Assembly: GCA_963921825.1 (NCBI GenBank)
Contig: OY997589.1
Coordinates: 50,400,546-50,464,545 of the forward strand
DNA from: Erodium maritimum
Taxonomy: Eukaryota; Streptophyta; Magnoliopsida; Geraniales; Geraniaceae
DNA: 64,000 nucleotides
Direction: 5' to 3'
Shown: positions 41,201 through 64,000 of the stretch, in pieces
Position numbering within the stretch: the first letter of the stretch is position 1
How the letters are laid out: every line of letters begins with the position of its first letter
The notes under the pieces: model-generated
What the model was told of the DNA's origin: nothing
The model's input: only the letters and a program-made list of their open reading frames with translations
Databases searched by the model: none
Program-made: the position numbers and the translations under genes

Positions 41201-41488
41201 AACTAAAACCGCTGCGATGACGGCTAAGCATTTTGGATCCAAAACGGTCCTCGAATGGACCAAAACGTCGCTCGGTTGACTTTTCCAGCGAAAAGTCAAC
41301 ATTTCCCAAACTGATCAGAAAGTTGCCCTGAGTCCCCCCCGGAACTCACCTGGTCGATATTGGGGTCAACTTAAGTCCGGTATGACCCTCGAGGTCAAAT
41401 TTAGATTCAATCAAGTGTCTGCTGATTTTTTTTAAATTTTCCTGTTTTTCGCAGTTTTGACTAGCGTTGACCGGGAATGGTTATTACA
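38265..41488 (-). mobile_element. Solo LTR, family B, 3224 bp
   Basis: It starts TGTCACGCCCCGATTTCAG and ends GGTTATTACA. The flanks GATTT (38260-38264) and GATTC (41489-41493) match at 4 of 5, suggesting an aged target duplication. There is no internal region. It holds the inverted repeat GGTGAGCGTTCGCTCACC at about 38549 and a minisatellite at 39230-39620. A segment rich in GGCCGGCC-like words (40560-40640) reads through several small ORFs with no product. Confidence 0.88.
39230..39620. repeat. Minisatellite inside LTR B copy 2
   Basis: About three units of roughly 60 bp with CCCCACGGGCACTCACGGCC are followed by about five units of 36-40 bp with CACGGGCTCTCATGGCCACC. Same layout as in copy 1 but with different numbers of units. 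Confidence 0.8.
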
Positions 41489-43251
41489 GATTCGGCCTGT
41501 TATCTTGCGGTTTCAATTTAAATACACAAAAATCTCTAGTTTCTACGAGGGGTGGGATTGTACGACCTGTTTCTGAAGTCGTAGGAGGTGGAGACAACAG
41601 GGTTAGAATCACGATTTCTAGTGTAGTTAGGCCTTTTCCCCAAGTTGGTGAGCCCATAACTAAGGCCATATCCAATATTGTGAACCCCTCAAAGGTAACA
41701 ATTTCAGCAGATGGGACGTGTAATGCGGTAACAAAGGTGGTGGCCCCATCTCTTGACTTGAGTTACAAAAAACGTCTTTGTTATCACCAATCGACGACTT
41801 CCCCTCGTTACATTTACCGGACAAGACCCAACAGTTACTCTAGGGAAAGGCTGTTGGCTCAGGTAAAACGGTCTATAGATCAACCCCTCAAAGATCTGCA
41901 GGATCCTTGGAATACGCCCAAAGGTTTGGTTTGTAGGCCATAAGTTACTAAGACTTTTGGAATCTGTGACGATAACCTCTATTAAAGTCTGAAGTGGGGA
42001 TACGACACCATTTAGATAAATTCACATGTGTAGGATGGCTTAGTAAAACGACATCGTTCCGACGTCATGTCCTCTTCTCCAAAATAGATCAAATATAAAA
42101 GGAAATGGAAGCAGTAGAAGGGAGAAAGGATGAAGATGATAGTTCTAGTATCCATACCTTAGCATATAAGGTAATTGTAGTTCCTAGTTCTGGCGTAGCT
42201 TGTAGTGTAGACATAATAAAAGGACCTTGTAAGGTTGTCTTGATGTAGGTCGCATTACATAGTTCAATTAAGGCTTTATATGTTATTAATTCTTAACGAT
42301 TACGATATCAATCGTTATAATGGTATCAGAGCCCATCTTCTCATGCTTGTGGGTATGGTAGAAGGCAACATTGCTGACGATATGCATCCACGATGTTTGA
42401 AGAACAGACAAAGACGGAGAGCTTTGACAAGGGATTCGAGCCAGTCTTGCTTCACCGTGCTTCAACTTCAATGGTTCAAGTCCCTCCCCAGAGCTTCGAT
42501 TTTTATGGTAGTCCACCCAGAGAATCGGTTGATCAAAGTAAACCTTTTTACGCTTCACCTTTATTCGTCCACTCTATGTTCAGTTATGGTTTGATGAACG
42601 AAAATTTTCCCCAAAATTTATCCCCAAATTTTTTTCCTTCACTCATTGTATCGAACCCCAACTTCGTTTACATTATGTACCATAGAACCTTCACCATCGA
42701 GCCAAGCTTCACCTCACTACAACCACTACCTACTCCCCCTAACCACAACTAGAACACACTTCTGATACCCCAACTTCAATCACTACCGTGATATTCTAAT
42801 ACACGGATAAGCACACATCCACATCCACCTTTGATATAACCAACTAAACACCCATAAGATAATATCAAGCTTTTCAAAACCCACAGGATCAAGCCTGCGA
42901 TTTTGAGATGATGGCGATATTGAGGCTATTTGAAGTAGGGAGAAAAACCGAGTTGCAAAACAACTTCAAGAGAGAAGGTTGGCTGAGCAAACGGCTTGGG
43001 TAGCTCAACAACTAGCTATTTATGTATACATCTCGGAGCAGTTGGTTGATCTTGATAAACAAAGAGGAATGTATATGGTGAATGATATGAAATTGGTGGA
43101 AAAGTCCATATGAATGACCATATATTGAAAAATAGTGTTATGGAGGACAAAAATCTTGATGATGATTATGAAAATGAAGGTTCCTTTAACAAGCTTAATT
43201 CGGATGGTGGAGGGGTGGTACAAGATTATTATGGTGATTACAAGCTACTAA
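41489..43251 (+). other. Retroelement remnant with a primer-binding-site-like motif
   Basis: An ORF of 158 codons (41467-41943) begins just inside the LTR and continues outside it; its protein (IVRPVSEVVGGGDNRVRI..., NPSKVTISADGTCN) is not recognised. At 42100-42320 an ATATAAAAGG box and an LTR-end-like region precede TGGTATCAGAGC at 42321. Downstream, 42393-42752 is open for 119 codons (FEEQTKTESFDKGFEPVLL), possibly a degraded gag leader of another element. No typed domain is visible to assign a lineage. 42760-43251 is unassigned. Confidence 0.35.
42321..42332 (+). promoter_or_regulatory. Primer binding site-like motif (initiator tRNA-Met type)
   Basis: TGGTATCAGAGC is the usual plant LTR-retrotransposon primer binding site, complementary to the 3' end of initiator methionine tRNA. 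It lies 3' of an AT-rich, TATA-containing stretch that could be the end of a worn LTR. The LTR itself is not delimited. Confidence 0.55.
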
Positions 43252-46097
43252 TGTCACGCCTCAATTTCAGCGAACCGAACTCGGGACGCGAACATTTAAA
43301 AGATACAATTCTTTAAACCTGTTTTCTTTAAATCACTTTAAAATACCAGTTTAGTTCAACAAATAATGTCATTTACATCTCAAACAAATTAGTCCCACAC
43401 TTGGACAAAAATGGGTAGGTATACGTCACTAGACTCAAGACTCCCAGAACCCGCTTCAAGCTCTTCAAGCTTCAGAAGCTCACCTAATCCAGCCTGCGAA
43501 CGGTACCTGTAGGAAAAGCAGCTAGGGGTGAGCGTTCGCTCACCACCACGGATAACAGACTGACTACGGCATAATCAGCAGACAATGCCGGTGACACCAA
43601 CAACGACTCAAAAGACACACACACGACCAGTACTTTCCTCAACCGACTCAACCCTCGGACACGTTATGTAGACCCCACACTACGATCGACGACCTCCTCC
43701 AAGACACGACTGACCACACAATACCAAACAAGATCACAAAGGATCGCAACCCGGCTGCTTAGTAACCAATCTCTGTCTCTCGCCCTTTACCGATCATAGA
43801 CGTGGTCAGGCGGTCGACCTGTCGCGCAACTTCTCCCGATCCCAGTCGGGAGGCTAACCCACAACCTCTCTGCTTCACCTGATCCCAGTCGGGTGGTTAG
43901 CCACACCCGCGCGTCCTTCCCCCGATCCCAGTCGGGGAGCTAGCCCACAACCCCTCCGCTTCTCCCGATCCCAGTCTGGAGGCTAGCTACACCACACAAC
44001 CTCCACCAGTATCAAGTAACCAATCACAATCACAAACAAGTTCAAACAGACAGTAACGACACTGGTGACAACTCCACAGGCACTCAAGGCCAACAAGACA
44101 CCAACAACCAAACACAGGTTCAACAACCCTACGGGCCCTCATGGCCGCCCAAGACACCAACAGTAAAGTACGGGTTCACAACCCCACGGGCACTCACGGC
44201 AACCCAAAACACCGAAACGACAACACGGGCTCTCAAGGCCACCCAAGACTCAGCAGTAAATAACACGGGCTCTCAAGGCCACCCAAACTCGACAATAAAT
44301 AACACGGGCTCTCAAGGCCACCCAACTCGACAACAATTAACACGGCTCTCAAGGCCACCCAAACTCAACAACAAACAACACGGGCTCTCAAGGCCACCCA
44401 AACTCAATCAACAAAAAAACGCACAACAACCTCCGGCATAAACGATGCCTCCAACAGTCCTAAGATCACTAGTTTCACAAACAACCTCCGGGCATGGTCA
44501 TATGCCTCCAGTAAATCAGTTAACGCTAAGTTCTCTGCTCCTACGACACTACTAAGTGTCACATGCATTTCCAGTATTCGCTACGTTCCCGTATCATGCA
44601 TTTCTAATATTCGATAACCTAAAAACCCACGACACCCCGGTGTCACATGCAATTCTACAGTTAACTTTCCCTAGTCAAGGCCGAGATCCGGCTACTTTTC
44701 CCTACCTCAACCGAAGAACGCCTGCTACGCTTCCTAGCTACTGACGTTCTGGCTCGCTACCTCCGGGCTTCACTTCGATCGAAGCCGGACGCTAAAGATA
44801 ACACGAAAGTCATAGATTAATAACGGTTCCACCGCTAAATTAAATGTTACGATTAAACCAGTCTAGACCCGACAATTGTCCTTTAAACTCGAGCGGGCTA
44901 AAAGCGGGGTCACGGCGAATCGGGCTTGAGTATCCGAGCACCGAACCGGTGCATGCGAGGCACGGTCCCAATGCACGAGGTCCGATTCAACGGTCCGCTT
45001 TTGTTCCTTTCCAAACCCAAATAGCAGTCCATTTTAACAAGAGTTCCAGATTCGTTCAACTGCTCAAATTCCGTTTTAAATCCGTTTAACATCTAGTTTA
45101 AACGTTCAGGTTCCCAAACTCAATCCAGTTTCGATCCAATAATCTTAACAAGAAAACCTTTTGCTCGACTCTGGTTTCGTTTTCCTTTTTGATTAAAACC
45201 GTTTTATTTTCAAAATTGATTCTCGTTTTTGAACCCAAATTGATTTTAAACCCTTCATGGTATAGCTCTGATTTCGTTTTAACAAAAACCCTTTAACCTC
45301 AAAACTGATATCTTTTCCCTTTCCTTTCACAACTAATTTATTTCTTTAATTTAAGTTTGTTTCTGTTTCGATCCAACACCACCCAAAACCGATCTCAAAA
45401 CCCTAACTATTTCAAAACAACTTCCTTTTCTTCTCTTATTCCTATCTGATTTTTGTAAACTCAGTTTCTTCTATTTTCCGGATTCAACAGAACCGTTCCA
45501 AAATCAAGCCAGTTTAATCGTTCCAAAACGTTCCAAACATTAATCGATTTCATTAGCAGGTTTAACCAAATATTAATCGATTTATTAGCATGTTTAACCA
45601 AATATTAGTCGATTCATTAGCATGTTTAACCAAATATTAGGTTCCCTCAACAGATCCAAATCGAACGGACAACAAATAAGGAAAAAGGGCTCGATTTTAA
45701 TCCGGCCGACCAGGGTCGCCCGGTGGTAGGGGCTAACCGTAGGAGGAACAGCAAGGGCGGAGGCGGCGCACGGCGGTGCACGGCGGGACCCTTCTCGCCT
45801 CAGATCCGGACGGCCATGATGGCTTCGTCCCGGATCTGTCGAACGTGCCGGTGATCTGTGGCGGGGATCCGTGGCCGGAGTCGAGCACGGGAGCTGGCCG
45901 GGAGTTCGGCCACGCTCCGGGAAGAAGGAGGACGGTGCGAGGAGCTCGGAACGGTGGCGGCGTCGGTGTCGTGGATTGATCGAAGAAGAAGGGAAATCGG
46001 GGCTCGGGTGGGGGAGAAAAGACGGCGGCCGGAGCTGGTGGTGGCCGGAGACGGGTCTGCGAGGAGGGAAGGAGAGAGAGGCGGGTGGTGGCCGGAC
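43252..46097 (-). mobile_element. LTR family B/C-like copy 3, truncated by a copia insertion
   Basis: It begins TGTCACGCCTCAATTTCAG at 43252 and follows family B up to about 44820, including the inverted repeat (about 43529), five (T/C)CCGATCCCAGTCGGG-type words (43836-43980) and a minisatellite at 44090-44410. The 44880-45100 part instead resembles family C read on the opposite strand (CGAATCGGG, GAGCACCGAACCGGTGCA), so it is an intermediate or recombinant subfamily. It ends where the family A LTR starts at 46098; the remainder is not seen on the other side. The GC-rich 45700-46097 part carries long but meaningless ORFs on both strands. Confidence 0.75.
44090..44410. repeat. Minisatellite inside LTR B copy 3
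   Basis: Units of 35-60 bp with the core GGGCTCTCAAGGCCACCCAA are mostly reduced to the short unit type. Layout corresponds to the arrays of the other family B copies. Confidence 0.75.
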
Positions 46098-47785
46098 TGT
46101 TGGGTCTCGAGGTAGGGTTGGAGATGAACCAACTCGCAGCGGAAAATCAATGAAAACCAAGAGACGATTAAAACCATGAAAGAACTAACAAAGAATGGAT
46201 TCACAAGAGAAAAATTCAGCACTAGTTCTTACCAAAACAAGAACACCGGTTAACGAATGATTGGCTTGAGTCTCCAAGACGCCTACGTATCCACATGGGG
46301 ATCAAAGCCACGTAGTTCTTCTCTTTGAGGACTCAAGAACACAAACATGGAGGTGGAAACTAGCCAAACCCGAAATGGCCATGGAAGAGGGAGAGAAAAT
46401 GTGTTTCCTATTCTTGTCTTGTGTTTGTTATGTTGAAAAAAGATGACTTAAACATAACAAAACCCATACTTGTCCAACTAAAGGCATGGGACAAGTATGG
46501 TGTCAAGTAAGGTGTAAATAGGACAAAGTATGGCAAGACAAGATTGGGTTAGGTGGTGAATCACCAACACCTTGATCCTTGTCTTGCTTACTTAGTACTA
46601 ATTAATCAAGACTTGATTAATTTGTTCCATGGGCCTTGGTTGCATGGGCCTTTCATGGGCTTCTTGGAACATGGCCCGTGGCCATTTCCAACGAGGTCCC
46701 GTGATTCTCTCATCGCCTCCATGCCTTCCATACCAGAAATGTCCAATATTATCCGACGCGATCAATCCCAAGACTCCAAGCCTTGTCTCGATCCGTAAAG
46801 TCCTATTCACTTACGGGCACATGACCCAAAACCCAGTTTTGGTCATGTCCCGAGACAACTCCCTTTTGGCCATTCTCCATAAATGTGTCAATGAGTTTCA
46901 TCCTCCGGTGTGACCCTTAGGTTTATGCATGTCAATAGATCAACGTAAAATCCCATTTTACTTGATCCTATTTAAGTGGCAACTAACGAGACTTTAGTAT
47001 TGCCTGACACTACATAACGAATCGACCCTGTCGATTCTAACCTTTCCGTCGTCCCTGTCATTATCCTTTTATCTCCGATATCCTGATTGCGATAAGGCAT
47101 AGAGCCGTCATCCTTATTATTCTCAATCACCATTCCTTGATATGTGAGATGACTGAAGATATGATACCCAGTATCATGTGCATGGCCATGCTATTCTTCC
47201 AGTCACTCTCGATCAAGTGGCCGAGAACCGATATCTTTCCCATACCTCAGTATGAGGGATAAATCCCTTAGCCACCTTTCGTGTCACTCATGTAGCCCGT
47301 CCCCAAGCCAATCCTGGCCGTTATGGAAGCCCTGTTACGGACAACGTTAGGCTCAGGTCAAACTCAGTTGTTGACTACATAGCGATCACAAAGACTCCTT
47401 GGTCTAAGGATACATGACAAGCCACGACACTGAATATGTTCATGACTTAATCTATGGCACATATTCAGGGCGGGTCGTCCAATATCATGTCCCACATGAT
47501 ATCTATGATCAGACTCCGGAATCCCATTCCAATGACTAACAGAACGTAAGCCATAAAGAGCCATCTTTCATACTAGTCGCTTCTAGTGAAGCTTTGTTGA
47601 CTAGGGACCCATCGAGTGTGATCTATCTCGATCTATGGTTCTATTCGCATGGTGGGCATAGATCAGAGCACACATCGATATATTACTCCAACACATAAGT
47701 AATATAAAGCCGCTTTAATTTTATTGCTAACGATGATATGTACATTTGGACATTTAGGATTGAACTACGGGCACTAAGACTAACA
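46098..47785 (-). mobile_element. 3' LTR (family A) of a minus-strand copia element
   Basis: 1688 bp, TGTTGGGTCTCGAGG to CTAAGACTAACA. Its right edge touches a polypurine tract (47786-47803 read on the minus strand), and decayed gag-pol on the minus strand follows, so in element orientation this is the 3' LTR. The 5-bp flank on the left is CGGAC; its partner should lie beyond the missing 5' LTR. This copy fixes the orientation of all family A LTRs in the window. Confidence 0.93.
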
Positions 47786-47803
47786 ATCTCCCACTTGCCC
47801 TAG
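47786..47803 (-). promoter_or_regulatory. Copia polypurine tract
   Basis: Read on the minus strand it is CTAGGGCAAGTGGGAGAT immediately before the TGTTAG start of the 3' LTR. A GTGGGAGA-type tract is standard for plant copia plus-strand priming. Confidence 0.85.
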
Positions 47804-50800
47804 TTTCAATCTAAACTCCAATATGTCCCCATCGACTTTACATGTCTAACATGTTTAGGCAACGACACTGCCTTAGTCAAAGGGTTGGCTATGTTATCAT
47901 CTGTTGCAATATAGGTTATCTTCTTTTCCCCTCAGTTCAGTATTTCTCTGATTAGGTGGATACGCCGTAGTACATGTTTGGATTTGTTATGCGATCTGGG
48001 CTTTTAGCTTTCGCAATGGCCCTTGTGTTGTCGCAAAATGGATTCACTAGGCTGGATGGGTTTTTAATTACACCCAACCCTGCCGTGAATTTCCAAATCC
48101 ACATAGCCTCCTTAGCTGCCTCTGCAGCATCCATGTACTTGGCCTCTGTTGTAGATTCGACAATGGTATCTTGCTTTATGCTCTCCCAGCTAAAGCTCTA
48201 TCATTCAGCATAAACACATATCCTGATTGACTTCTAAACTCATCTGTATTTGTCTTGGAAATCTAGCGTCTACTCATCCTTCGATGACTAGTTCAACATC
48301 ATCTTTCCCCGGGTTAGACTGATGTCTACTGGTACAACATAAGGCTTACGAGACGTCCGGTCTTATACATGTCATGGCATATATGATCGATCCTGCCCCC
48401 AGGCGCATAGGATTCTCATCATCCTTTTCAGCTCATCGGGTGTCTTAGGACACTGAGTCTTGCTGAGATGAATGCCATGACTAGTGGGTAAGAGTCCTTT
48501 CTTTGAATCGAGCATTAAGAACCTACTCAATGCCTTGTTCACATAGGTTCCCTGACTTAAATCCAAGACCCTCTTGGTGCGATCTCTACATATCTTAATC
48601 CTTAAGATATGAGAAGCATCCCCTAAGTCCTTTATTGAAAAACACTTCCTCAACCAAGCTTTAGTCTCGTGCAAGGTTGGGATGTCGTTATCAATGAGAA
48701 CCAGAAAGGTAATATTGCTCCCACTAGCCTTCTTATAAACGCAAGATTCATCCTCGTTCTTGATTAAGCCAAATCAAATTACAGCTTCATCAAAACGAAG
48801 GATCCAACTCCGAGAAGTTCGTTTCAATCCATAAATGGATTTCAACAACTTATAAATCTTTCCTTTATTCTTCGGATCGTCAAAACCTTTGGGCCGAGAC
48901 ATACAAACGTACTCAGTCAAATTTCCATTTAGGAAAGCGGTTTTGACATCCACTTGCCATATCTCGTAATTATGATACGCAGTTATGTCAAGAAGAATTT
49001 GGATCGATTTTGACCATAGCCACTAAGGAGAAGTTTTCCTCATAGTCAATCCATTGGATCTGCCTATAACCTTTCGCCACCAGTTGAGCTTTGTAGGTCA
49101 GAGGGTTGCCATCCATGTCCATCTTCACCTTGAAGATCCATTTGCATCCTATGGTCCTCACACCATTGATGGGATCAACCGGTTCCTAAACTCGGTTGTC
49201 CGACATGGATTGCATTTCCTCCCTCATGGCTCCCAGCCATAACTTGGAGTTAGGCCCATCCACGACTTCCTGAAAGGTGGATGGATCATAGTGATCCACC
49301 ATGACTTCATTGTCACCTCCGGATACCATATCTTGGAGCTGGAAGATTGATCCTTTCAAATCGCCTTGGACCTTCCGGAATTGTAACACGAATTGGTTCT
49401 TACTCTACGACAATCTCTGGCTCCTTTCTACTGGGTTGCCAATTGGTTTAGACAGATCTGTACCATCCTGAATTTCTTCGAGATGCACAGTCCTCCCAAT
49501 GACGTCTTTGGAAACAAAACTCCTTTTCCATAAAGACCCCACCCCATGCGACAAACACCATGTTCTCACTGGGATTGTAGAAGTAGTATCCCCTTGTTGC
49601 TTTGGGATACCACACGAAGGTGCATATCTCAGATCTTGGTTCGAGCTTAGTCGAAACCAAATGTTTCACATAAGCCTCGCAACCACAAATCTTTAGGAAG
49701 GACAAAGCGGGCATCATCCCATTTCATTTTTAAAATGGTGGCCCTTCCACACCCTTGTCGAAGCCCCGATTCACTATGAATGCGGTCGTCTCTAGAGCAT
49801 AACCCCTGAAAGAGATTGGGAGATCAGTCCAACTAATCATGGAACGGACCATTGTCTAACAATGTCCGATTTCTCCGTTTGGCTACACATTTCAACTACA
49901 GTGTCCCAGGAGGAGTCCATTCCAAAAGGATCCCATTCTCTTTTAGATGATCTAATAACTCTGTGCTCAAGTATTTTCCACCTCGATCCAATCGAAGTGC
50001 CTTAATACCTTTGTCGAGCTGGTTTTCTACTTTAGTCTTAAACTCTTTGAATTTATCAAAAGCTTCAGACTTATGTCTCACCGAATAGACATAACCATAT
50101 TTACTGTAATCATCAGTAAATGTGGTAAAGTAGCTAAAACCCCTCTTGGCAAGTGAACTTATTGGTCTACACACATTCGAGTGTATCAGCCCCAATAATT
50201 CACCCGCCCTTTTATCGCGATCGATAAAAGGGAACTTTAGTCATTTTTCCCATCAAACAAACCTTGCACCTATCGATCGAATGGAACTCGAATGAACCTG
50301 AAAGTTCGCACTTCTAAAGTACTGATAGGTGCTTCTTGTTTATGCGACCTAAATGACAGTGCCATAACAGAGTTAGGTTTAAATTGTTGGATTTAGACCT
50401 CTTGGTATTAACGGAATATATAGAACTTGAGGCATTGTTAGCCATATCTAATATGTACAATCCTCCAACCAAGTCAGTACTGGTATAAAACATATCATTG
50501 CATAGAACATTGAAAACTCCATTTCCAATATTAACATTATATCCTTCCTTGTCAAACATGGATACATATATAATATTCGTACTAAAAGTAGGTATGCAAT
50601 ATACATTATACAATACTAAGACAAGGCCTCTTGGCAAAGCAAGACTCATGGATCCTATAGCAGTTGCCATAACTCTGAGGTCCACTTCGTGCTTTCCAGA
50701 CCTCTCCTACTTTCAGCCACCATATATAAGTGCATGTGTGAGATTCAGTCCTGGTATCTAATACCCATGAATCTTTGGAAGTAGAGAGATGTAGCTCTAT

Positions 50801-51314
50801 AGAGTTAATACCGGATGAAGGCACGGTCCCACCGCCTTTCCTTAGATCATCCAGGTTTCCTGATGAAGGCGCAGTCCTACTGCCCTTCTTCAGATCATCC
50901 ACGCTATTTGATGAAGGCGCAGACCCACTGCCCTTCTTCAGATCAGCCGTGAACTTCCTGTAATCCCGGTTCCAATGACCAGGCTGTTGGCAGTAGAAGC
51001 AGACATTCTCATGTGTCTCATCTTTCCTGCCAAGTGCGCATGGGCCCCGCCCTTGCCACTTCCAATTCCCTTGTTGACCATCAGAATATCCTTGGATCCC
51101 AAATCCCTGATATATTCTTCTCAGCAATTAATGACACTTCATGTAACTCTGATATGGTCTTAGAGACAGCCTTGTCATGGACATATTCTTTGCGTTCAGA
51201 CTTGAGGACTATCCTCAAAATTCTGTACCAGTCAAAATAGTTTGTCCCATTTAGGTTGACCCTGTCAAGAATGGTTTTTAATGACAAACTATTAATGTTC
51301 GCTGAATTTGCCAT
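47804..51314 (-). pseudogene. Decayed Ty1/copia gag-pol
   Basis: Domains are in copia order on the minus strand. Gag starts at the ATG at 51314 (MANSANINSLSLKTILDRVN). A zinc knuckle reads CFYCQQPGHWNRDY with the last Cys replaced. The protease motif is WVLDTRTESH where DTG is expected. The integrase zinc-binding start is LWHCHLGRINKKHL, and the integrase core (49896-50195) reads HSNVCRP where HSDV is expected and LDRGGKYLS where SDRGGEYLS is expected, so two catalytic acids are lost. Reverse transcriptase is fragmentary: FLVLIDNDIPTL lacks the YVDD catalytic box. RNase H is at 47952-48134 (AAEAAKEAMWIWKF, FCDNTRAIAKAKS). Several frameshifts and stops occur. It could move only in trans, if at all. 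Its right part is present twice in the window. Confidence 0.93.
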
Positions 51315-52589
51315 TTGATCTACAACAGATAAAATTCAATCAGTAAACTGAATAAATTTTATGAAGATCAAGCTTAAACACCAACAATCGATTCTAAACC
51401 TTTAGAATCTGAAACCAAGATCATTGATTCACTCGATTAAGCTGAACTAATGCTCACCACTTAATCGAGCTATGTAGGTAGGACTCCATCCAATCACATC
51501 CAATGTGACTCTTGGCTAGGGTATGTACTTATGTACACGACTTACCCTATCTGTTACCCTAGCTCGACCTCAGGCCGAGAATCGTAGTCGGGTCCACCAA
51601 TTTTCAACTATGGCTCGTCACTATGTAGGTGCTCCGCTAATGCGCACGACACCCACATATGTCGTCCAAACCTACTACCCCGCTTCCCCATGGATGCTCC
51701 GCTAATGCGCACGACACCCATAGGACGGGGAGGTAGTAAGGTGTTGATGATTGGGAGGTATCGGACATGACCCGCTTTTACTTGTCCAGTTGTGTTCAAA
51801 CCTTTGGCACATCCTAGATGCGATGAGCACATCAACTACATTCCAAATGCAATGATGCCTCAAATTACATCCAATGTAATTCTTCCTTTGAACCCTTCAA
51901 CTACATCCAATGCAATGACGGTTCTAAGGGTTCACACACAAGGATTAAAATTCCAATTTTATCTTTGCATGTGAGGTGATATGCTCGGTAAATAAAGTTA
52001 AGCATGCAATTCTAAAACACATAGAATTAATCATGCATAAACTAAACCAAGCATAAATCGATAAATGTGCACATAATAGCCCCCCTAAACTAACTCCCAC
52101 TAGCTTCTTGAGCTCCATCGACTCCAAGCCGATGCCAACACCCGAAAAGCCACCAAATGACCTTTTCGCCCTTTCTTCGTCTTGAGTAAAATATTACAAT
52201 TTAATATACGACTCGCAGGTCGGGAATAAATAAATATTACAAACAAGTGGCTCGACGACCACACCTTGAAAAAAAAATTATACGCTAACTCTAACGGCTC
52301 GCAGGCCGTGAAAAGCGATAAATAATTAAATCAAGCTCGGGGATATTATGTACACCATGCCAACATCACATCACACATCGTGTTATCAAACAAGCATGTT
52401 ATCAAACATCATGTGATTTTCCGGTTTTAATCAATAGCCAAGTTTCGAAAATTTTTGATGCTCGGTTTATCGAAACCGTTCAAAAATGAAACTTTTGAAC
52501 ATTTGATCTTCGAGTTCGTCATGACGGTTCCAAACTCGTCATAACTAACTAAACGGTTTAGCATTGGCATATCAACCATCCAATGGTCA
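51315..52589 (-). other. Copia 5' leader (first copy)
   Basis: In element orientation this lies upstream of gag and ends with CTGTTGTAGATC just before the ATG, as in many plant copia elements. It contains TTGGAGTCGATGGAGCTCAAG (about 52110-52130 inverted). I see no primer binding site and no 5' LTR; the family B LTR at 52590 replaces whatever followed. Two 45-bp phrases around GCTCCGCTAATGCGCACGAC (51632-51720) form a short direct repeat. Confidence 0.7.
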
Positions 52590-53198
52590 TGTCACGCCCC
52601 AATTTCAGCGAATCGAACTCGGGACGCGAACTTTTAAAACATGAATACTTAAAAACCTGTTTTGAATAAAAGCTTTGACATTTCCATTTATTTACCAAAA
52701 TAATAGTAGTATTTACAATACAAAAACGTCCCAACAAGTGGACAAGGTACACATCCGTCACTAGACTCAACAAAAGTAAAGACCAGACTCCGCTCCAAGC
52801 TCCATGAACTTCAAGAGCTCACCTAGTCCGTCCCACGAACAGTACCTGTAGGAAAAGCAGCTAGGGGTGAGCGTTCGCTCACCACCACGGATAACAGACT
52901 GACTACGGCATAATTAGCAGACAAAGCCAGTAACACTAAAACCAAACCCAACACTGGGACTATAGTCCCCAACTCAAGTACCCAACTGACCCACAACCCG
53001 TTACCTTCCTCAACAGACTCAACACTCGATAACACAATGTAGACCCGACACAACTATCGACGACCTCCTCCAAGGACACGACAGAAAGAGTACACAACGC
53101 CAAACAAGATCACAAAGGATCGCACACCAAACAAGATCACAAAGGATCGCATACCAGCTGCTCAGTAACCTCTCCCACTCACACGAACACGGATCATG

Positions 53199-53410
53199 CT
53201 AGCCAAAGAATGCTTACAACCTGTGATACTCAAACTCGGACCAGGCCAGCCAAAGAATGCTTGCAACCTGTGTTACTCAAACTCGGACCAGGCCAGCCAA
53301 AGAATGCTTGCAACCTGTGTTACTCAAACTCGTGTCAGGCCAGCCAAAGAATGCTTGCAACCCGTTGATACTCAAACTTGGTCAGGCCAGCCAAAGAATG
53401 CTTGCAACCT
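53199..53410. repeat. Minisatellite 1 in LTR B copy 4, about 48-bp unit
   Basis: About four to five units of AGCCAAAGAATGCTTGCAAC followed by CTGTG(T/A)TACTCAAACTCGG. A degenerate single unit with this core is present in LTR B copy 2 (about 39067), so the expansion is specific to this copy. Repeated identically in unit 2 at 62503-62714. Confidence 0.85.
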
Positions 53411-53682
53411 ACCGGGATCCGCAATCACAATCACACGCAAATTCATCGACCAGTAACAACACAAGTTCAACACTCACAGGCACTCATGGCCACCAAGACA
53501 CCAACAGTAAAACTCGAACTCAACAGCCCCACAGGCACTCACGGCCTCCCAAGACACACCGATAGTAAGACACGGACTCAACAATCCCACAGGCACTCAC
53601 GGCCTCCCAAGACACCAACCATAAGACACGCTTGCAACTTACCGAGACTCTAACTCGTAAGCCAGCTAAATGAAGCTTGCAA

Positions 53683-53709
53683 CCCCCCCCCCCCCCCCCC
53701 CCCCCCCCC
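53683..53709. repeat. Poly-C tract, 27 nt
   Basis: An uninterrupted run of 27 C between TTGCAA and GAGACTC, inside the LTR. The other strand is G27. In the second copy the tract has 28 C and is preceded by one more A. Confidence 0.95.
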
Positions 53710-53789
53710 GAGACTCTAACTCGGTCAGGCCAGCCAAAGACACCATCCTTAGTACACGGGCCCTCAAGGCCACCCAAAACACCAATTTA

Positions 53790-54125
53790 AATACACGGGC
53801 TCTCATGGCCACCCAAACTCAATCAATAAATAATACGGGCTCTCAAGGCCACCCAAAACTCGATAATAAAAATACGGGCTCTCAAGACCACCCAAACTCA
53901 ATCAATAAATAATACGGGCTCTCAAGGCCACCCAAAACTCGATAATAAAATACGGGCTCTCAAGACCACCCAAACTCAATCAATAAATAATACGGGCTCT
54001 CAAGGCCACCCAAAACTCGATAATAAAATACGGGCTCTCAAGGCCACCCAAACTCAATCAATAAATAATACGGGCTCTCAAGGCCACCCAGAACTCGATA
54101 ATAAAATACGGGCTCTCAAGGCCAC
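53790..54125. repeat. Minisatellite 2 in LTR B copy 4, about 76-bp dimeric unit
   Basis: Alternating half-units ACGGGCTCTCAAGGCCACCC followed by AAAACTCGATAATAAAAT or AAACTCAATCAATAAATAAT make a higher-order unit of about 76 bp, repeated four to five times. Core words are shared with the arrays of the other family B copies. Confidence 0.88.
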
Positions 54126-56031
54126 TCAAGACACCAAATAAGCAATCAACCTCCGGCTTAACCAAGCCTCCAACAGTCCTAACATCAACAGTTTCACAAT
54201 CAACCTTCGGGCATGGTCATATGCCTCCAGTACTCCTAATATCGATAAGTTCACAAACAACCTCCGGGCATGGTCATATGCCTCCAGTAAAACAATTAAC
54301 GCTAAGTTCTCTGTTCCTACGACACTACTAAGTGTCACAAGCCTTTCCAATAATTACTAAGTCCCCGTAACATGCCTTTCTAATAAACGCTACAAACTCG
54401 TATCATGCTTTTCTAATATTTAAATAAACCTATTCAACCCACGACACCCCAGTGTCACATGCAATTCTACTGTTAACTTTCCCCAGTCAGGGCCGAGATC
54501 CGGCTACTTTTCCCTACCTCGTATATAATCCCAAAAGCGCTCCAACAACACCCGAAGTACACCCATTCACTCGCCGAGCTTCCCTTTGCCTCGGTCCGTA
54601 GCACGATCTAAAAGAACACAAATTCAAAGTACTTTTAAACTAGTACGAATAAACCGAAAATTAACATACTTAACGCCCAAACGTAACCCCGACAATGCCG
54701 ATCACTCCCAAACTTCCCAATTACTCGATATTGTCGATAAAGGACCCGTAAAGGCCAGATTCGCCCGACATGGCGAATCTGCCCGGGTTTTGGTTAATTG
54801 CCTTCCGGGGCTCCAAAAGTTCCCGTTTTCGTTTCTACGGTCTTAGAATATTTCAAGGAACCCAACGCACTTGACGGAATTGAATTCCGACTTCTAAGTC
54901 AATTAATTAACGTTTAAAGTTTCCAAAACACGTTAATTACAACTTCTCCAATTTAATTCCAAATTTCGATTCGATTAAGGATAAATGGTCCGGGGAACGT
55001 TTTAAACCACCCGAACGATAAAAACCGAGCACCCGAGCATGTGGGCCCCACCCACACTACTTGGCCGAGACCCTAGGGTTTAAGGGGAGGCTCGGCCACC
55101 ATGTGGTGGCTGCTGCCAGCTCCGGCCAGCCACCTCATGGCCGGCCGGCCACCACCCACGGTGGCCGGAGCTCCTCCCGAGCCTCCGGTCATCGGAAAAC
55201 GTGAAATTAAACCCCCAAACACCTCTAAAACGTCTCCAACACCTCCCCACACTCTACACAACCCTAAGCCTTAGTTTATACTCAAACCCTAGCTTCCAAG
55301 AAAATAACCAAAACGAGAATCGATTCGGGTATTACCGTAGAGGAGAACGAGGGGAACGGGATTGCTCTTTGCTTTGACTCGATCCAAGGGCTCGATCACA
55401 AACCCTAGCTCAACCTCCCTTCTTCTCTCTTCTTCTCCTTCTCCTTCTCTCTCTAAAACCTCTCTTCTTCTTTCTATTTTAAAACAACTAACACAAAAAC
55501 CCAATTAAAACTCTTTTTTTTTCTTTTAAAACCCAAGTCTCGGCCAGCCCTTCTCCTCCATTCATTTCCCCCCCAAAACTAACACCACCACATTTAGGAC
55601 ATGTGTCAAGGTGGGTCCCACACCTTTTGGAAAATATCTAGTTAATATTTTCCAATCAGATTCGCGAAAATCAGACGTTTCGGGCCCCGAACGGGCACTT
55701 TTTCCCAAAAATTACGAAACTTGGCGGGCCACAAGGAAACGGCTCAACTAAGACCGCTGCGATGACGGTTAAGCTTTTCGGATCCAAAACGGTCCTCGAA
55801 TGGACCAAAACGTCGCTCGGTTGACTTTTCCAGCGAAAAGTCAACATTTCTCAAATTGATCAGAAAGTTGCCCTGAGTCCCCCGTAACTTACTTTGGTCA
55901 ATAACGGGGTCAACTTAAGTCCGGTATGACACTCGGGGTCATTTTAGGTTCATTAAGTGTCCGTCTTAAAATTTTTAAATTTTCCTGTTTTTCGCAGGTT
56001 TGACTGGCGTTGACCGGGAGTGGTTATTACA

Positions 56032-56046
56032 ATCTACCCCCCTTAA
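56032..56046 (-). promoter_or_regulatory. Polypurine tract of the gag-only gypsy element
   Basis: Minus-strand AAGGGGGGTAGAT directly precedes the TGTAATAACC start of the LTR. Just upstream, CGCGGACGAAATTCATTTAAG in its normal frame encodes ADEIHLR, the usual C-terminal end of plant chromovirus pol, so this small piece of pol survives. Confidence 0.9.
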
Positions 56047-57536
56047 ATGAATTTCGTCCGCGAAATTTGAATAACGCTCATAAAAGGTACAAAAGAACAC
56101 GTACCCTGATAGGTCTCGCGGTAGGTGGAGGATCCTAGGGTCCGGGGGTCGGTAACTGCGTACATTCTTCCCTCCGACTCCCGCTGCCCCTGACCCGGCG
56201 CACTGACTGCTGGGTACCCATAGCTCTGCTGCTGTCTCAGAGCTGGCACGCTTGTCGATGGCAGCGAAAACCTCGATTGGTGACTCTGACGAGGGCGACC
56301 CCTGGGTGACTGTACCGTCCGCGACTGCTGCGGCCGCTGTGCCGATGTCGCACCCAACGGCTCACGACACCATTCCATTGTGTGTCCCACACGGCCGCAC
56401 CGGAGACAGCTGGTCCCATCGGCTCCCGACTCCGAGCCCTGGCCTGCCCGGCACCCCCGCCGCAAGTGGCCTGGCTCCTTGCAGAGATGGCATGTCGGCA
56501 CCCTCTGTGTCGCGACTGGCCCCATGGACGTCACCGACCCATGCTGTCTCGTTCCACCCTGGTGAGTCGGTGGTCGGAAGAATCCAGAGGTCCTCTGCCT
56601 CCTTGGGTCTCGTGACTCTGACGGCCCTGCAAAGTCGGTCGGCCGCTGTCGAACCTCGCGGGTTCTGGCCGCATCTTGGATCCCCTGCTCCACCGTCGCT
56701 GCGGTGTCCACGAGATCTGTGTACTTCCGCAGTCTCAAGGCGAGAACCTGGTTCCGAATCCCCTGCCTCAGTCCTCCCTGGAACCGCAGGCAACGGTTCT
56801 GCTCGGTCATCACCATCTCCGGCGCGAATCTGGCCAAAGCTGTGAACCTGGCCTCGTACTCTGCTACCGTCATCCCCTCCTGTTCCAAGTCTAGGAACTG
56901 CCGATGTCGCTCCAACCGAGCCGACTCGGGAAAGTACTGTTCCATAAAAACTGTCTGGAAGATGTTGTAGTCATAACCGACCATGTCCTTCACACGCCCC
57001 CACCAGTGGTAGGCGCTGTCTCTCAGCTGGTGGGCCGCGAAGGACACCCTACGACGACCCTCCTCGACACCCGATGTATCCAGGTCGCGTGTGACCTGCT
57101 CTAGCCACCTCTCGGCTAGGTCGGGGTTCGGCTCCCCGACAAATGTAGGTATCCCGAGCTTCAGGAAGTCTAGTAGTGCTCTGGATGTGTGATCCTCTGT
57201 CTGACCGGGCCTAACTGGGACCGCGGCTGCCTCTGGAGCTGGTGAGGCCGACTCTCGGTTGGCGATGACCGCCACCAAACTCTGGACTGTCCTGGTCAGC
57301 TCATCCAGGGCAGTCATAACGGGTGGGTCTGCGATCGGCGGGACGCTGGGCGTGCCCGTAGAAGGTCCCGCATCGCTCCTCCTGTCCTCACCGACAGGAG
57401 TACCCTGCGCCTCGGCGTACTCGGCGGGCTCAACGGTGGGCACCCATCCTGGTGTCCCCGCTGACCGTCCCCGCCTGCCTCGCGCGGGCGCTCGTCCCCG
57501 TGCCACTGCTGCTCTTCCTCGTCTGCCACGAGCCAT
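56043..57536 (-). CDS. Ty3/gypsy (chromovirus-type) Gag, intact ORF without pol
   Basis: 497 codons from the ATG at 57536 (MARGRRGRAAVARGRAPARG). The order is an Arg/Gly/Ala-rich N-terminus, then the retrotransposon gag domain (FLKLGIPTFVGEPNPDLAER, LRDSAYHWWGRV, FMEQYFPESAR, MTVAEYEARFTALARFAPEM), then two zinc knuckles CHLCKEPGHLRRGC and CLRCGRVGHTMEWC, then a Ser/Gln/Pro-rich tail (SHQSRFSLPSTSVPALRQQQ, YAVTDPR). Gag packages element RNA into virus-like particles. Normally protease, RT, RNase H, integrase and chromodomain follow in the same frame. Here the ORF runs about 45 codons beyond the last gag-like stretch and stops (TAA) inside the polypurine tract, reading the last codons of pol out of frame. 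Pol has therefore been deleted while gag is open. The more upstream in-frame start at 57563 is GTG and was not used. Confidence 0.9.
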   Translation of the reverse strand: MARGRRGRAAVARGRAPARGRRGRSAGTPGWVPTVEPAEYAEAQGTPVGEDRRSDAGPSTGTPSVPPIADPPVMTALDELTRTVQSLVAVIANRESASPAPEAAAVPVRPGQTEDHTSRALLDFLKLGIPTFVGEPNPDLAERWLEQVTRDLDTSGVEEGRRRVSFAAHQLRDSAYHWWGRVKDMVGYDYNIFQTVFMEQYFPESARLERHRQFLDLEQEGMTVAEYEARFTALARFAPEMVMTEQNRCLRFQGGLRQGIRNQVLALRLRKYTDLVDTAATVEQGIQDAARTREVRQRPTDFAGPSESRDPRRQRTSGFFRPPTHQGGTRQHGSVTSMGPVATQRVPTCHLCKEPGHLRRGCRAGQGSESGADGTSCLRCGRVGHTMEWCREPLGATSAQRPQQSRTVQSPRGRPRQSHQSRFSLPSTSVPALRQQQSYGYPAVSAPGQGQRESEGRMYAVTDPRTLGSSTYRETYQGTCSFVPFMSVIQISRTKFI

Positions 57537-58506
57537 CAGCAGGTATCCTCTGCACGGATACACGCAAACGTTCAGTTTGCGAACTCAAAAAAAAAACAGC
57601 TCGAATGCAATAACGTTCACCCGGTCTACGTCTACCCCAACGTACTTGTTACTAAACGCTACACCGTTCACGCTAATCATACTTTAATCATAACATCACG
57701 TACGCGGAACCTCAAACTTAACCACACAAACGTACACCAAGCCCTTATTCGGTCCCTTATGCACTTACTCATAACTTTCCGCAACCAAGCCACTGTTCGC
57801 TACTCGTCCCTTGCGGGAAAAGTAGTAAAGGGGATGAGCGTTATGCTCACCTCCACGGACACCCGCTCGATTATGGCATACTAGTAACGCACCAAGGACT
57901 TACCACTCTAGTCAGGGCAAAACACCAACACAGAACTGAAGCCAACATCCCACCGTCCATGCTAACAACACCTCAAGTACTCGCTCGAGTAAGATGAACC
58001 TCGACACGGGAAACATGTCCTCAAAACAGTAAAACACCGTTGCTCGCGCTATTAAAGCCTTAAGTATACTAATACGTAAGCGAAAAAACTCAACAACAAC
58101 AACCCAACCGTACACCAGGCCTACAGCCTCTACAACCCATAACTGCGAACACAAACCCATAAATCAACGCTCAACCGTACGAACAAGAACCGAGTCACAC
58201 AACCGCAAACCTAAACGTACAACGAAACGAACTCTTACCCTAGGGTACTCGTATTCTACCAGTCTCTTGCCGACCCGCACACTCGTGCGTCGCGGACAAA
58301 TTACCACCAAAACGACCCAACACGTACCATAGAACCCGACTAAACCACGAACAAGCTAAATTGGCCAAACGCCCATACCAACAACAACGACGACACCCGC
58401 CCACCGGGCCAACCAAAGTCAAATAGCGCCCACCGGGCCAACCAACGACAATCACAATACGCCCACAGGGCCAACCAAAGTCAAACACAAACGCCCACGG
58501 CGTCAA
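57537..58506 (-). mobile_element. Upstream leader of the gag-only element, resembling a diverged family B LTR
   Basis: At 57800-57900 the plus strand reads GGAAAAGTAGTAAAGGGGATGAGCGTTATGCTCACC, then CCACGGAC and ATGGCATACTAGTA, which parallels the conserved GGAAAAGCAGCTAGGGGTGAGCGTTCGCTCACC module of the family B LTRs. At 58390-58500 three CGCCCAC(C/A)GGGCCAACCAA units form an array like that of LTR C. No TGTCACGCCCC end and no primer binding site was found. The sequence stops at the duplication junction (58506/58507). It is probably part of the element's 5' LTR or a leader derived from one. Confidence 0.5.
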
Positions 58507-60618
58507 ACATGGATTGCATTTCCTCCCTCATGGCTCCCAGCCATAACTTGGAGTTAGGCCCATCCACGACTTCCTGAAAGGTGGCTGGATCATAGTGATC
58601 CACCATGACTTCATTGTCACCTCCGGATACCATATCTTGGAGCTGGAAGATTGATCCTTTCAAATCGCCTTGGACCTTCCGGAATTGTAACACGAATTGG
58701 TTCTTACTCTACGACAATCTCTGGCTCCTTTCTACTGGGTTGCCAATTGGTTTAGACAGATCTGTACCATCCTGAATTTCTTCGAGATGCACAGTCCTCC
58801 CAATGACGTCTTTGGAAACAAAACTCCTTTTCCATAAAGACCCCACCCCATGCGACAAACACCATGTTCTCACTGGGATTGTAGAAGTAGTATCCCCTTG
58901 TTGCTTTGGGATACCACACGAAGGTGCATATCTCAGATCTTGGTTCGAGCTTAGTCGAAACCAAATGTTTCACATAAGCCTCGCAACCACAAATCTTTAG
59001 GAAGGACAAAGCGGGCATCATCCCATTTCATTTTTAAAATGGTGTCCCTTCCACACCCTTGTCGAAGCCCCGATTCACTATGAATGCGGTCGTCTCTAGA
59101 GCATAACCCCTGAAAGAGATTGGGAGATCAGTCCAACTAATCATGGAACGGACCATTGTCTAACAATGTCCGATTTCTCCGTTTGGCTACACATTTCAAC
59201 TACAGTGTCCCAGGAGGAGTCCATTCCAAAAGGATCCCATTCTCTTTTAGATGATCTAATAACTCTGTGCTCAAGTATTTTCCACCTCGATCCAATCGAA
59301 GTGCCTTAATACCTTTGTCGAGCTGGTTTTCTACTTTAGTCTTAAACTCTTTGAATTTATCAAAAGCTTCAGACTTATGTCTCACCGAATAGACATAACC
59401 ATATTTACTGTAATCATCAGTAAATGTGGTAAAGTAGCTAAAACCCCTCTTGGCAAGTGAACTTATTGGTCTACACACATTCGAGTGTATCAGCCCCAAT
59501 AATTCACCCGCCCTTTTATCGCGATCGATAAAAGGGAACTTTAGTCATTTTTCCCATCAAACAAACCTTGCACCTATCGATCGAATGGAACTCGAATGAA
59601 CCTGAAAGTTCGCACTTCTAAAGTACTGATAGGTGCTTCTTGTTTATGCGACCTAAATGACAGTGCCATAACAGAGTTAGGTTTAAATTGTTGGATTTAG
59701 ACCTCTTGGTATTAACGGAATATATAGAACTTGAGGCATTGTTAGCCATATCTAATATGTACAATCCTCCAACCAAGTCAGTACTGGTATAAAACATATC
59801 ATTGCATAGAACATTGAAAACTCCATTTCCAATATTAACATTATATCCTTCCTTGTCAAACATGGATACATATATAATATTCGTACTAAAAGTAGGTATG
59901 CAATATACATTATACAATACTAAGACAAGGCCTCTTGGCAAAGCAAGACTCATGGATCCTATAGCAGTTGCCATAACTCTGAGGTCCACTTCGTGCTTTC
60001 CAGACCTCTCCTACTTTCAGCCACCATATATAAGTGCATGTGTGAGATTCAGTCCTGGTATCTAATACCCATGAATCTTTGGAAGTAGAGAGATGTAGCT
60101 CTATAGAGTTAATACCGGATGAAGGCACGGTCCCACCGCCTTTCCTTAGATCATCCAGGTTTCCTGATGAAGGCGCAGTCCTACTGCCCTTCTTCAGATC
60201 ATCCACGCTATTTGATGAAGGCGCAGACCCACTGCCCTTCTTCAGATCAGCCGTGAACTTCCTGTAATCCCGGTTCCAATGACCAGGCTGTTGGCAGTAG
60301 AAGCAGACATTCTCATGTGTCTCATCTTTCCTGCCAAGTGCGCATGGGCCCCGCCCTTGCCACTTCCAATTCCCTTGTTGACCATCAGAATATCCTTGGA
60401 TCCCAAATCCCTGATATATTCTTCTCAGCAATTAATGACACTTCATGTAACTCTGATATGGTCTTAGAGACAGCCTTGTCATGGACATATTCTTTGCGTT
60501 CAGACTTGAGGACTATCCTCAAAATTCTGTACCAGTCAAAATAGTTTGTCCCATTTAGGTTGACCCTGTCAAGAATGGTTTTTAATGACAAACTATTAAT
60601 GTTCGCTGAATTTGCCAT
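58507..60618 (-). pseudogene. Decayed copia gag-pol, second copy, truncated in RT
   Basis: Same defects as the first copy: substituted protease DTG, lost integrase acids, substituted knuckle Cys. The 3' part is cut off by the duplication junction, so the remaining RT, RNase H, polypurine tract and 3' LTR are absent. Shared defects show the element was already dead before it was duplicated. Confidence 0.93.
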
Positions 60619-61893
60619 TTGATCTACAACAGATAAAATTCAATCAGTAAACTGAATAAATTTTATGAAGATCAAGCTTAAACACCAACAATCGATTCTA
60701 AACCTTTAGAATCTGAAACCAAGATCATTGATTCACTCGATTAAGCTGAACTAATGCTCACCACTTAATCGAGCTATGTAGGTAGGACTCCATCCAATCA
60801 CATCCAATGTGACTCTTGGCTAGGGTATGTACTTATGTACACGACTTACCCTATCTGTTACCCTAGCTCGACCTCAGGCCGAGAATCGTAGTCGGGTCCA
60901 CCAATTTTCAACTATGGCTCGTCACTATGTAGGTGCTCCGCTAATGCGCACGACACCCACATATGTCGTCCAAACCTACTACCCCGCTTCCCCATGGATG
61001 CTCCGCTAATGCGCACGACACCCATAGGACGGGGAGGTAGTAAGGTGTTGATGATTGGGAGGTATCGGACATGACCCGCTTTTACTTGTCCAGTTGTGTT
61101 CAAACCTTTGGCACATCCTAGATGCGATGAGCACATCAACTACATTCCAAATGCAATGATGCCTCAAATTACATCCAATGTAATTCTTCCTTTGAACCCT
61201 TCAACTACATCCAATGCAATGACGGTTCTAAGGGTTCACACACAAGGATTAAAATTCCAATTTTATCTTTGCATGTGAGGTGATATGCTCGGTAAATAAA
61301 GTTAAGCATGCAATTCTAAAACACATAGAATTAATCATGCATAAACTAAACCAAGCATAAATCGATAAATGTGCACATAATAGCCCCCCTAAACTAACTC
61401 CCACTAGCTTCTTGAGCTCCATCGACTCCAAGCCGATGCCAACACCCGAAAAGCCACCAAATGACCTTTTCGCCCTTTCTTCGTCTTGAGTAAAATATTA
61501 CAATTTAATATACGACTCGCAGGTCGGGAATAAATAAATATTACAAACAAGTGGCTCGACGACCACACCTTGAAAAAAAAATTATACGCTAACTCTAACG
61601 GCTCGCAGGCCGTGAAAAGCGATAAATAATTAAATCAAGCTCGGGGATATTATGTACACCATGCCAACATCACATCACACATCGTGTTATCAAACAAGCA
61701 TGTTATCAAACATCATGTGATTTTCCGGTTTTAATCAATAGCCAAGTTTCGAAAATTTTTGATGCTCGGTTTATCGAAACCGTTCAAAAATGAAACTTTT
61801 GAACATTTGATCTTCGAGTTCGTCATGACGGTTCCAAACTCGTCATAACTAACTAAACGGTTTAGCATTGGCATATCAACCATCCAATGGTCA
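60619..61893 (-). other. Copia 5' leader (second copy)
   Basis: Counterpart of 51315-52589 with no difference that I noticed. Immediately left of the LTR at 61894 the minus strand reads TGACCATTGGATGG, which is not a primer binding site. Confidence 0.7.
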
Positions 61894-64000
61894 TGTCACG
61901 CCCCAATTTCAGCGAATCGAACTCGGGACGCGAACTTTTAAAACATGAATACTTAAAAACCTGTTTTGAATAAAAGCTTTGACATTTCCATTTATTTACC
62001 AAAATAATAGTAGTATTTACAATACAAAAACGTCCCAACAAGTGGACAAGGTACACATCCGTCACTAGACTCAACAAAAGTAAAGACCAGACTCCGCTCC
62101 AAGCTCCATGAACTTCAAGAGCTCACCTAGTCCGTCCCACGAACAGTACCTGTAGGAAAAGCAGCTAGGGGTGAGCGTTCGCTCACCACCACGGATAACA
62201 GACTGACTACGGCATAATTAGCAGACAAAGCCAGTAACACTAAAACCAAACCCAACACTGGGACTATAGTCCCCAACTCAAGTACCCAACTGACCCACAA
62301 CCCGTTACCTTCCTCAACAGACTCAACACTCGATAACACAATGTAGACCCGACACAACTATCGACGACCTCCTCCAAGGACACGACAGAAAGAGTACACA
62401 ACGCCAAACAAGATCACAAAGGATCGCACACCAAACAAGATCACAAAGGATCGCATACCAGCTGCTCAGTAACCTCTCCCACTCACACGAACACGGATCA
62501 TGCTAGCCAAAGAATGCTTACAACCTGTGATACTCAAACTCGGACCAGGCCAGCCAAAGAATGCTTGCAACCTGTGTTACTCAAACTCGGACCAGGCCAG
62601 CCAAAGAATGCTTGCAACCTGTGTTACTCAAACTCGTGTCAGGCCAGCCAAAGAATGCTTGCAACCCGTTGATACTCAAACTTGGTCAGGCCAGCCAAAG
62701 AATGCTTGCAACCTACCGGGATCCGCAATCACAATCACACGCAAATTCATCGACCAGTAACAACACAAGTTCAACACTCACAGGCACTCATGGCCACCAA
62801 GACACCAACAGTAAAACTCGAACTCAACAGCCCCACAGGCACTCACGGCCTCCCAAGACACACCGATAGTAAGACACGGACTCAACAATCCCACAGGCAC
62901 TCACGGCCTCCCAAGACACCAACCATAAGACACGCTTGCAACTTACCGAGACTCTAACTCGTAAGCCAGCTAAATGAAGCTTGCAAACCCCCCCCCCCCC
63001 CCCCCCCCCCCCCCCGAGACTCTAACTCGGTCAGGCCAGCCAAAGACACCATCCTTAGTACACGGGCCCTCAAGGCTACCCAAAACACCAATTTAAATAC
63101 ACGGGCTCTCATGGCCACCCAAACTCAATCAATAAATAATAGGGCTCTCAAGGCCACCCAAAACTCGATAATAAAAATACGGGCTCTCAAGACCACCCAA
63201 ACTCAATCAATAAATAATACGGGCTCTCAAGGCCACCCAAAACTCGATAATAAAATACGGGCTCTCAAGACCACCCAAACTCAATCAATAAATAATACGG
63301 GCTCTCAAGGCCACCCAAAACTCGATAATAAAATACGGGCTCTCAAGGCCACCCAAACTCAATCAATAAATAATACGGGCTCTCAAGGCCACCCAGAACT
63401 CGATAATAAAATACGGGCTCTCAAGGCCACTCAAGACACCAAATAAGCAATCAACCTCCGGCTTAACCAAGCCTCCAACAGTCCTAACATCAACAGTTTC
63501 ACAATCAACCTTCGGGCATGGTCATATGCCTCCAGTACTCCTAATATCGATAAGTTCACAAACAACCTCCGGGCATGGTCATATGCCTCCAGTAAAACAA
63601 TTAACGCTAAGTTCTCTGTTCCTACGACACTACTAAGTGTCACAAGCCTTTCCAATAATTACTAAGTCCCCGTAACATGCCTTTCTAATAAACGCTACAA
63701 ACTCGTATCATGCTTTTCTAATATTTAAATAAACCTATTCAACCCACGACACCCCAGTGTCACATGCAATTCTACTGTTAACTTTCCCCAGTCAGGGCCG
63801 AGATCCGGCTACTTTTCCCTACCTCGTATATAATCCCAAAAGCGCTCCAACAACACCCGAAGTACACCCAGTCACTCGCCGAGCTTCCCTTTGCCTCGGT
63901 CCGTAGCACGATCTAAAAGAACACAAATTCAAAGTACTTTTAAACTAGTACGAATAAACCGAAAATTAACATACTTAACGCCCAAACGTAACCCCGACAA
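61894..64000 (-). mobile_element. LTR family B copy 5 (partial, runs off the window)
   Basis: Counterpart of LTR copy 4, starting TGTCACGCCCCAATTTCAG. It includes the inverted repeat (about 62169), minisatellite 1 (62503-62714), the poly-C run (62988-63015, 28 nt) and minisatellite 2 (about 63095-63430), and ends inside the LTR at the window edge. Confidence 0.93.
62988..63015. repeat. Poly-C tract, 28 nt (second copy)
   Basis: Run of 28 C after TTGCAAA, against 27 C after TTGCAA in the first copy. Confidence 0.95.

What the first reader, a model, noticed from the sequence alone, without database searches (positions are those of the whole stretch)
49203..64000. Very recent 9.3-kb head-to-tail duplication with non-LTR breakpoints
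The 9304-bp block at 49203-58506 is followed directly by a second copy with only about half a dozen visible differences over 5.5 kb. The breakpoints lie inside copia RT and inside the leader of the gag-only element, not at LTR ends, so LTR-LTR recombination does not explain it. Possible causes are replication slippage or end joining, a rolling-circle/eccDNA-type reinsertion, or an assembly duplication. If real, the locus may be a longer array, since the repeat continues off the window.
Basis: seen in the sequence. Interest (0 to 1): 0.75.

Follow-up and report, generated by a model that had tools for sequence, protein, structure and literature searches.

The report
Recent head-to-tail duplication in nested retrotransposons
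In a plant-like DNA window a 9.3-kb stretch of nested jumping-gene remains is followed directly by a nearly identical second copy, which is either an ordinary recent repair-type tandem duplication or an assembly error, and the sequence alone cannot say which.

Summary
49203-54695 and 58507-64000 match head to tail (offset 9304) with 4 substitutions and 2 indel places; the left edge is exact and the second copy runs off the window. The unit holds the 5' half of a minus-strand copia element, with a gag-only gypsy-type element (LTR 52590-56031, gag 56046-57584) inserted beyond copia's gag. The only abnormal joint seen is 58506/58507: the copia frame runs on through 49203 but is cut off at 58507. 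Neither breakpoint is an LTR end, so LTR-LTR recombination does not explain it. If real, it is an ordinary tandem duplication by end joining or template switching; a similar 22.7-kb case is published for maize centromere 10. The rival, a contig overlap joined end to end without merging, predicts the same sequence; it is somewhat favoured by the clustering and kind of the differences and disfavoured by the absence of a gap. I cannot separate the two: no reads are available, and the genome search did not complete (10 of 10 requests). Low interest.

The parts
49203..58506 (.). first copy of the 9304-bp unit
58507..64000 (.). second copy, first 5494 bases, truncated by the end of the window
58506..58507 (.). 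novel joint between gag-element leader and copia RT region
   Evidence: copia frame cut off here, continuous across 49203
46098..47785 (-). 3' LTR of the copia element (1688 bp, to the left of the unit and outside it); on its right a polypurine-tract-like stretch (minus strand) as I read it
   Evidence: same LTR family as solo LTRs 28196-29883 and 34294-35981
47786..52589 (-). copia internal region (RT, integrase, gag, leader), degenerate; the unit takes the part from 49203 rightwards
   Evidence: Pfam RVT_2 in 48375-48773, rve in 49899-50240, gag_pre-integrs and Pol_BBD in 50317-50706, zf-CCHC in 50609-51127 (only rve is above its curated cut-off); translation
52590..56031 (-). 3' LTR (3442 bp) of a gag-only gypsy-type element; 5 bases on its left are GGTCA
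   Evidence: three other copies of this LTR family in the window, one of them partial
56046..57584 (-). gag reading frame, 513 codons stop to stop, ending 14 bases from the LTR, so there is no room for pol
   Evidence: (Retrotrans_gag, 1.3e-16)
58398..58506 (-). minisatellite (repeat starts 29, 33 and 32 bases apart) in the gag-element leader; the unit ends inside its fourth repeat

Best explanation
A real, recent tandem duplication of a stretch of nested retrotransposon DNA. A break or stalled fork in the minisatellite of the gag-element leader was joined, by end joining or template switching with little homology, to the copia RT sequence 9.3 kb away on the sister chromatid or homologue, which leaves two direct copies and one novel joint. 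Shown: two direct copies, one novel joint, no LTR or other long homology at the joint. Inferred: that the assembly is right, that joining used at most a few bases of homology, and the age.
For: Direct contiguous copies with no N among the 64000 bases. The left edge is in a continuous copia frame and the joint is the only abnormal place seen, which is the form of a simple tandem duplication. Left flank and unit end share no base directly at the edge (CG against AA), though the three bases before these, GTC, are alike. The broken fourth minisatellite repeat ends GTCAA; in the third repeat GTCAA is followed by ACA, and the copia side of the joint also begins ACA, so the native right flank may have offered 3 bases of microhomology (window frequency of ACA 2.4%, of ACA or ATA, the continuation in the first repeat, 4.4%; the flank itself is unseen). 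Precedent: maize CEN10, a 22.7-kb adjacent duplication starting in a retrotransposon coding region and ending in an LTR, with 5 nt at the joint, ascribed to alternative end joining (PMC4806543, section 23 read).
Against: Differences are clustered: none in about 3.94 kb between unit positions 539 and 4480; with 6 or 7 events placed uniformly that has P of 0.0026 or 0.0008 (a post-hoc test, and part of the cluster lies in a C run and short repeats, which mutate fast). Three of 4 substitutions are transversions and 2 of 6 events are indels, which is not the transition-rich decay usual in plant transposons (recalled); at most 1 transition of 4 has P 0.05 or 0.11 if three quarters or two thirds of changes are transitions. 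Both differences that could be polarised are changes in copy 2.
Confidence: 0.5

Rival explanations
1. Assembly artefact: one contig ended at 58506, the next began at the copy of 49203, and the 9.3-kb overlap (read-length scale) was not merged, because of read errors or allelic differences. The genome holds the unit once.
For: Breakpoints at arbitrary places; length in the range of long reads (recalled); clustered, transversion- and indel-rich differences, two of them in the first 540 bases of copy 2 where a contig would begin; both polarisable differences in copy 2. Such false duplications from unmerged alleles or read errors are documented, the two copies being sometimes joined by wrong gap filling (PMC9516828, passages seen).
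Against: No N or gap at 58506/58507, whereas such pairs are most often separated by a gap (PMC9516828, passages); no HindIII, EcoRI, BamHI, XbaI or NotI site within 300 bases of either breakpoint as BAC ends might give (GATC sites do occur there). The possible ACA microhomology would be chance.
Confidence: 0.44
2. Excision of the unit as a circle and its return into the home locus by homologous recombination, giving the same two direct copies.
For: Predicts the same sequence; not excluded by any search.
Against: Needs two steps where one suffices; no trace specific to it was seen.
Confidence: 0.05
3. Unequal recombination between LTRs or other dispersed repeats.
For: The window is rich in LTR copies.
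Against: The joint lies between a copia RT sequence and a gypsy-type leader for which no shared homology was found in the window.
Confidence: 0.01

Closest known systems
22.7-kb adjacent segmental duplication in maize centromere 10 (PMC4806543, section 23 read)
   Same: Direct adjacent copies of nested retrotransposon DNA, one edge in a retrotransposon coding region, the other inside another part of an element
   Different: There both outer edges were seen and 5 nt of microhomology shown; here the right edge lies outside the window; 9.3 kb instead of 22.7 kb
False heterotype/homotype duplications of genome assemblies (PMC9516828, passages)
   Same: Near-identical copies on one scaffold with arbitrary ends
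   Different: Most often a gap lies between them; read depth and k-mers, by which they are told, cannot be tested here
TR-GAG elements (non-autonomous LTR elements with gag only; recalled, name seen only in a search listing)
   Same: The nested gypsy-type element has an LTR, a gag frame and no pol
   Different: Its 3.4-kb LTR makes it larger than the class as I recall it; its 5' LTR is not in the window

Membership tests
tandem (adjacent) segmental duplication | two direct copies, one novel joint, native sequence at the outer left edge | tested here: met
   (copy 2 seen for 5494 bases only)
tandem (adjacent) segmental duplication | native sequence at the outer right edge | not testable with these tools
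   lies beyond 64000; genome search not answered
end-joining/microhomology duplication | none to about ten bases of homology at the joint | tested here: inconclusive
   no shared base directly at the left edge; right flank unseen; ACA only inferred from the third minisatellite repeat
false assembly duplication | reduced read depth, no spanning reads | not testable with these tools
   no reads available
false assembly duplication | gap between the copies (usual, not required) | tested here: not met
   no N in the window
LTR-LTR recombination product | joint inside or at the end of an LTR shared by both sides | tested here: not met
TR-GAG element | LTRs on both sides, gag, no pol | tested here: inconclusive
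   3' LTR, gag and lack of pol seen; 5' LTR outside the window

The most novel reading that the evidence does not exclude
The window shows the edge of a young satellite-like array whose 9.3-kb monomer is a chimera of a copia and a gag-only gypsy-type element, spread by circle-mediated or break-induced amplification.
Probability: 0.05. Interest if true: 0.4.

Novelty: new member of a known kind. Interest (0 to 1): 0.15.

Why it matters
If real it is one more example that adjacent duplications in retrotransposon-rich plant-type DNA can arise by low-homology repair and not only by LTR recombination. If false it is a local assembly error that would inflate copy numbers. Neither changes current understanding.

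Tried and rejected
LTR-LTR recombination was rejected (no LTR or shared repeat at the joint). BAC-end ligation at common cloning sites was looked for and not seen (no HindIII, EcoRI, BamHI, XbaI or NotI site within 300 bases of either breakpoint; GATC sites occur there, 291 in the window). Folding of 120 bases around each breakpoint gave nothing I could interpret. A plasmid-collection search with 1001 bases across the joint found nothing. Rfam: no match at gathering score in the window. The native right flank could not be inferred from relatives: beyond 57886 the leader matched nothing in the window except its own minisatellite. Five paper searches were made; one search returned nothing.

Full report
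Observation. A self-comparison of the window finds 49203-54695 matched to 58507-64000 in the same orientation at 99.87%. The base-level alignment shows 4 substitutions and 2 indel places, one of them at the start of a run of 27 (copy 1) or 28 (copy 2) C; BLAST counts the indels as 3 gap openings. The left edge is exactly 49203. Copy 2 is cut by the window's end after 5494 bases, so about 41% of it and its right edge are unseen.

Anatomy. The sequence is of plant type (copia- and gypsy-type elements; a COG6 C-terminal match at 9680-10189, 6.6e-33, and a sub-threshold EamA match at 5946-6293; 'plant' is my inference, no call named the organism). A 1688-bp LTR family occurs as two solo LTRs with perfect 5-bp target-site repeats (28196-29883 GAGTC, 34294-35981 ACCGG) and as 46098-47785, which has CGGAC on its left and ATCTC on its right, i.e. 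no such repeat, and is followed on the right by what I read as a polypurine tract (minus strand) and the copia RT region; I take it as the 3' LTR of a minus-strand copia element. The copia element runs right through RT, integrase and gag, with many stops, to 52589, where a gypsy-type LTR of 3442 bp begins (52590-56031, TG...CA, GGTCA on its left). No copia LTR sequence was found between copia's gag and that point, nor the primer-site motif there, so the second element most likely sits in copia's 5' leader and copia's 5' LTR lies off the window (inference). Its leader holds a minisatellite with repeat starts at 58398, 58427, 58460 and 58492; the unit ends inside the fourth.

The joint. On the minus strand the copia frame reads ...GAMREEMQSM SDNRV*EPVDPINGVRTIGCKW... 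through 49203 (the stop I take as ordinary decay), whereas at 58507 it reads ...GAMREEMQSM and then passes into the gag-element leader. So the left edge of copy 1 is native and 58506/58507 is the sole novel joint seen. Directly at the edge the left flank and the unit's end differ (CG against AA); the three bases before, GTC, are alike in both, which may be chance. Whether the native right flank shares bases with the start of the unit cannot be read, since it lies beyond the window. The third minisatellite repeat has GTCAA followed by ACA, the same three bases with which the copia side begins; the first repeat has GTCAA followed by ATA. If the fourth repeat once continued like the third, the joint had 3 bases of microhomology; if like the first, 1. 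This is a hint only.

Real or artefact. For a real duplication: contiguous copies without N, a single simple joint, the possible microhomology, and a published close parallel in maize centromere 10 (PMC4806543, section 23). For an artefact: arbitrary breakpoints at a spacing in the range of long reads (recalled), differences that are clustered (none over about 3.94 kb; P 0.0026 for 6 events and 0.0008 for 7 under uniform placement, post hoc), three transversions out of four substitutions, two indel places, and both polarisable differences in copy 2. These two were judged by short contexts: the copy-1 form of each occurs 16 times in the window and the copy-2 form once; the 16 include repeats counted in both copies of the unit, and the other LTR relatives have gaps at these two columns in the alignment. 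54566 is ambiguous between LTR relatives, the C run has no counterpart in them, and 49281 (serine or alanine codon) and 49741 were not polarised. Against an artefact: no gap, where such pairs are most often separated by one (PMC9516828, passages). I put the two at about 0.5 and 0.44. If real, 4 substitutions in 5493 sites correspond to some 28,000-56,000 years at 1.3e-8 to 6.5e-9 per site and year (rates recalled).

What could not be done. The genome-wide search, which might have shown the right edge and the copy number if this genome is held at all, gave no answer in 10 of 10 requests. No reads are available.

Verdict. A correct observation of an ordinary kind of event or an ordinary kind of error. 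Nothing in the anatomy calls for a new mechanism.

Noticed in passing
52590-58506: Gag-only gypsy-type element with a 3.4-kb LTR rich in short tandem repeats; LTR copies of the family at 17359-20229 (2871 bp, target repeat AACCC), 38265-41488 (3224 bp, GATTT/GATTC) and 43252-44708 (partial).
   Followed up: partly
28196-29883 and 34294-35981: Two solo LTRs of the copia family with perfect 5-bp target-site repeats, about 98% identical to the copia 3' LTR at 46098-47785.
   Followed up: yes
508-1272: Tandem array of 2.7 copies of a 289-bp unit that itself holds 22-24-bp repeats.
   Followed up: no
42321-42332: A 12-base match to the tRNA primer-binding-site motif recalled for plant LTR elements, plus strand, between two LTR copies of the gypsy-type family.
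   Followed up: no
53683-53709 and 62988-63015: Run of 27 (copy 1) and 28 (copy 2) C inside the gypsy-type LTR; absent from the three other LTR copies in the alignment.
   Followed up: partly
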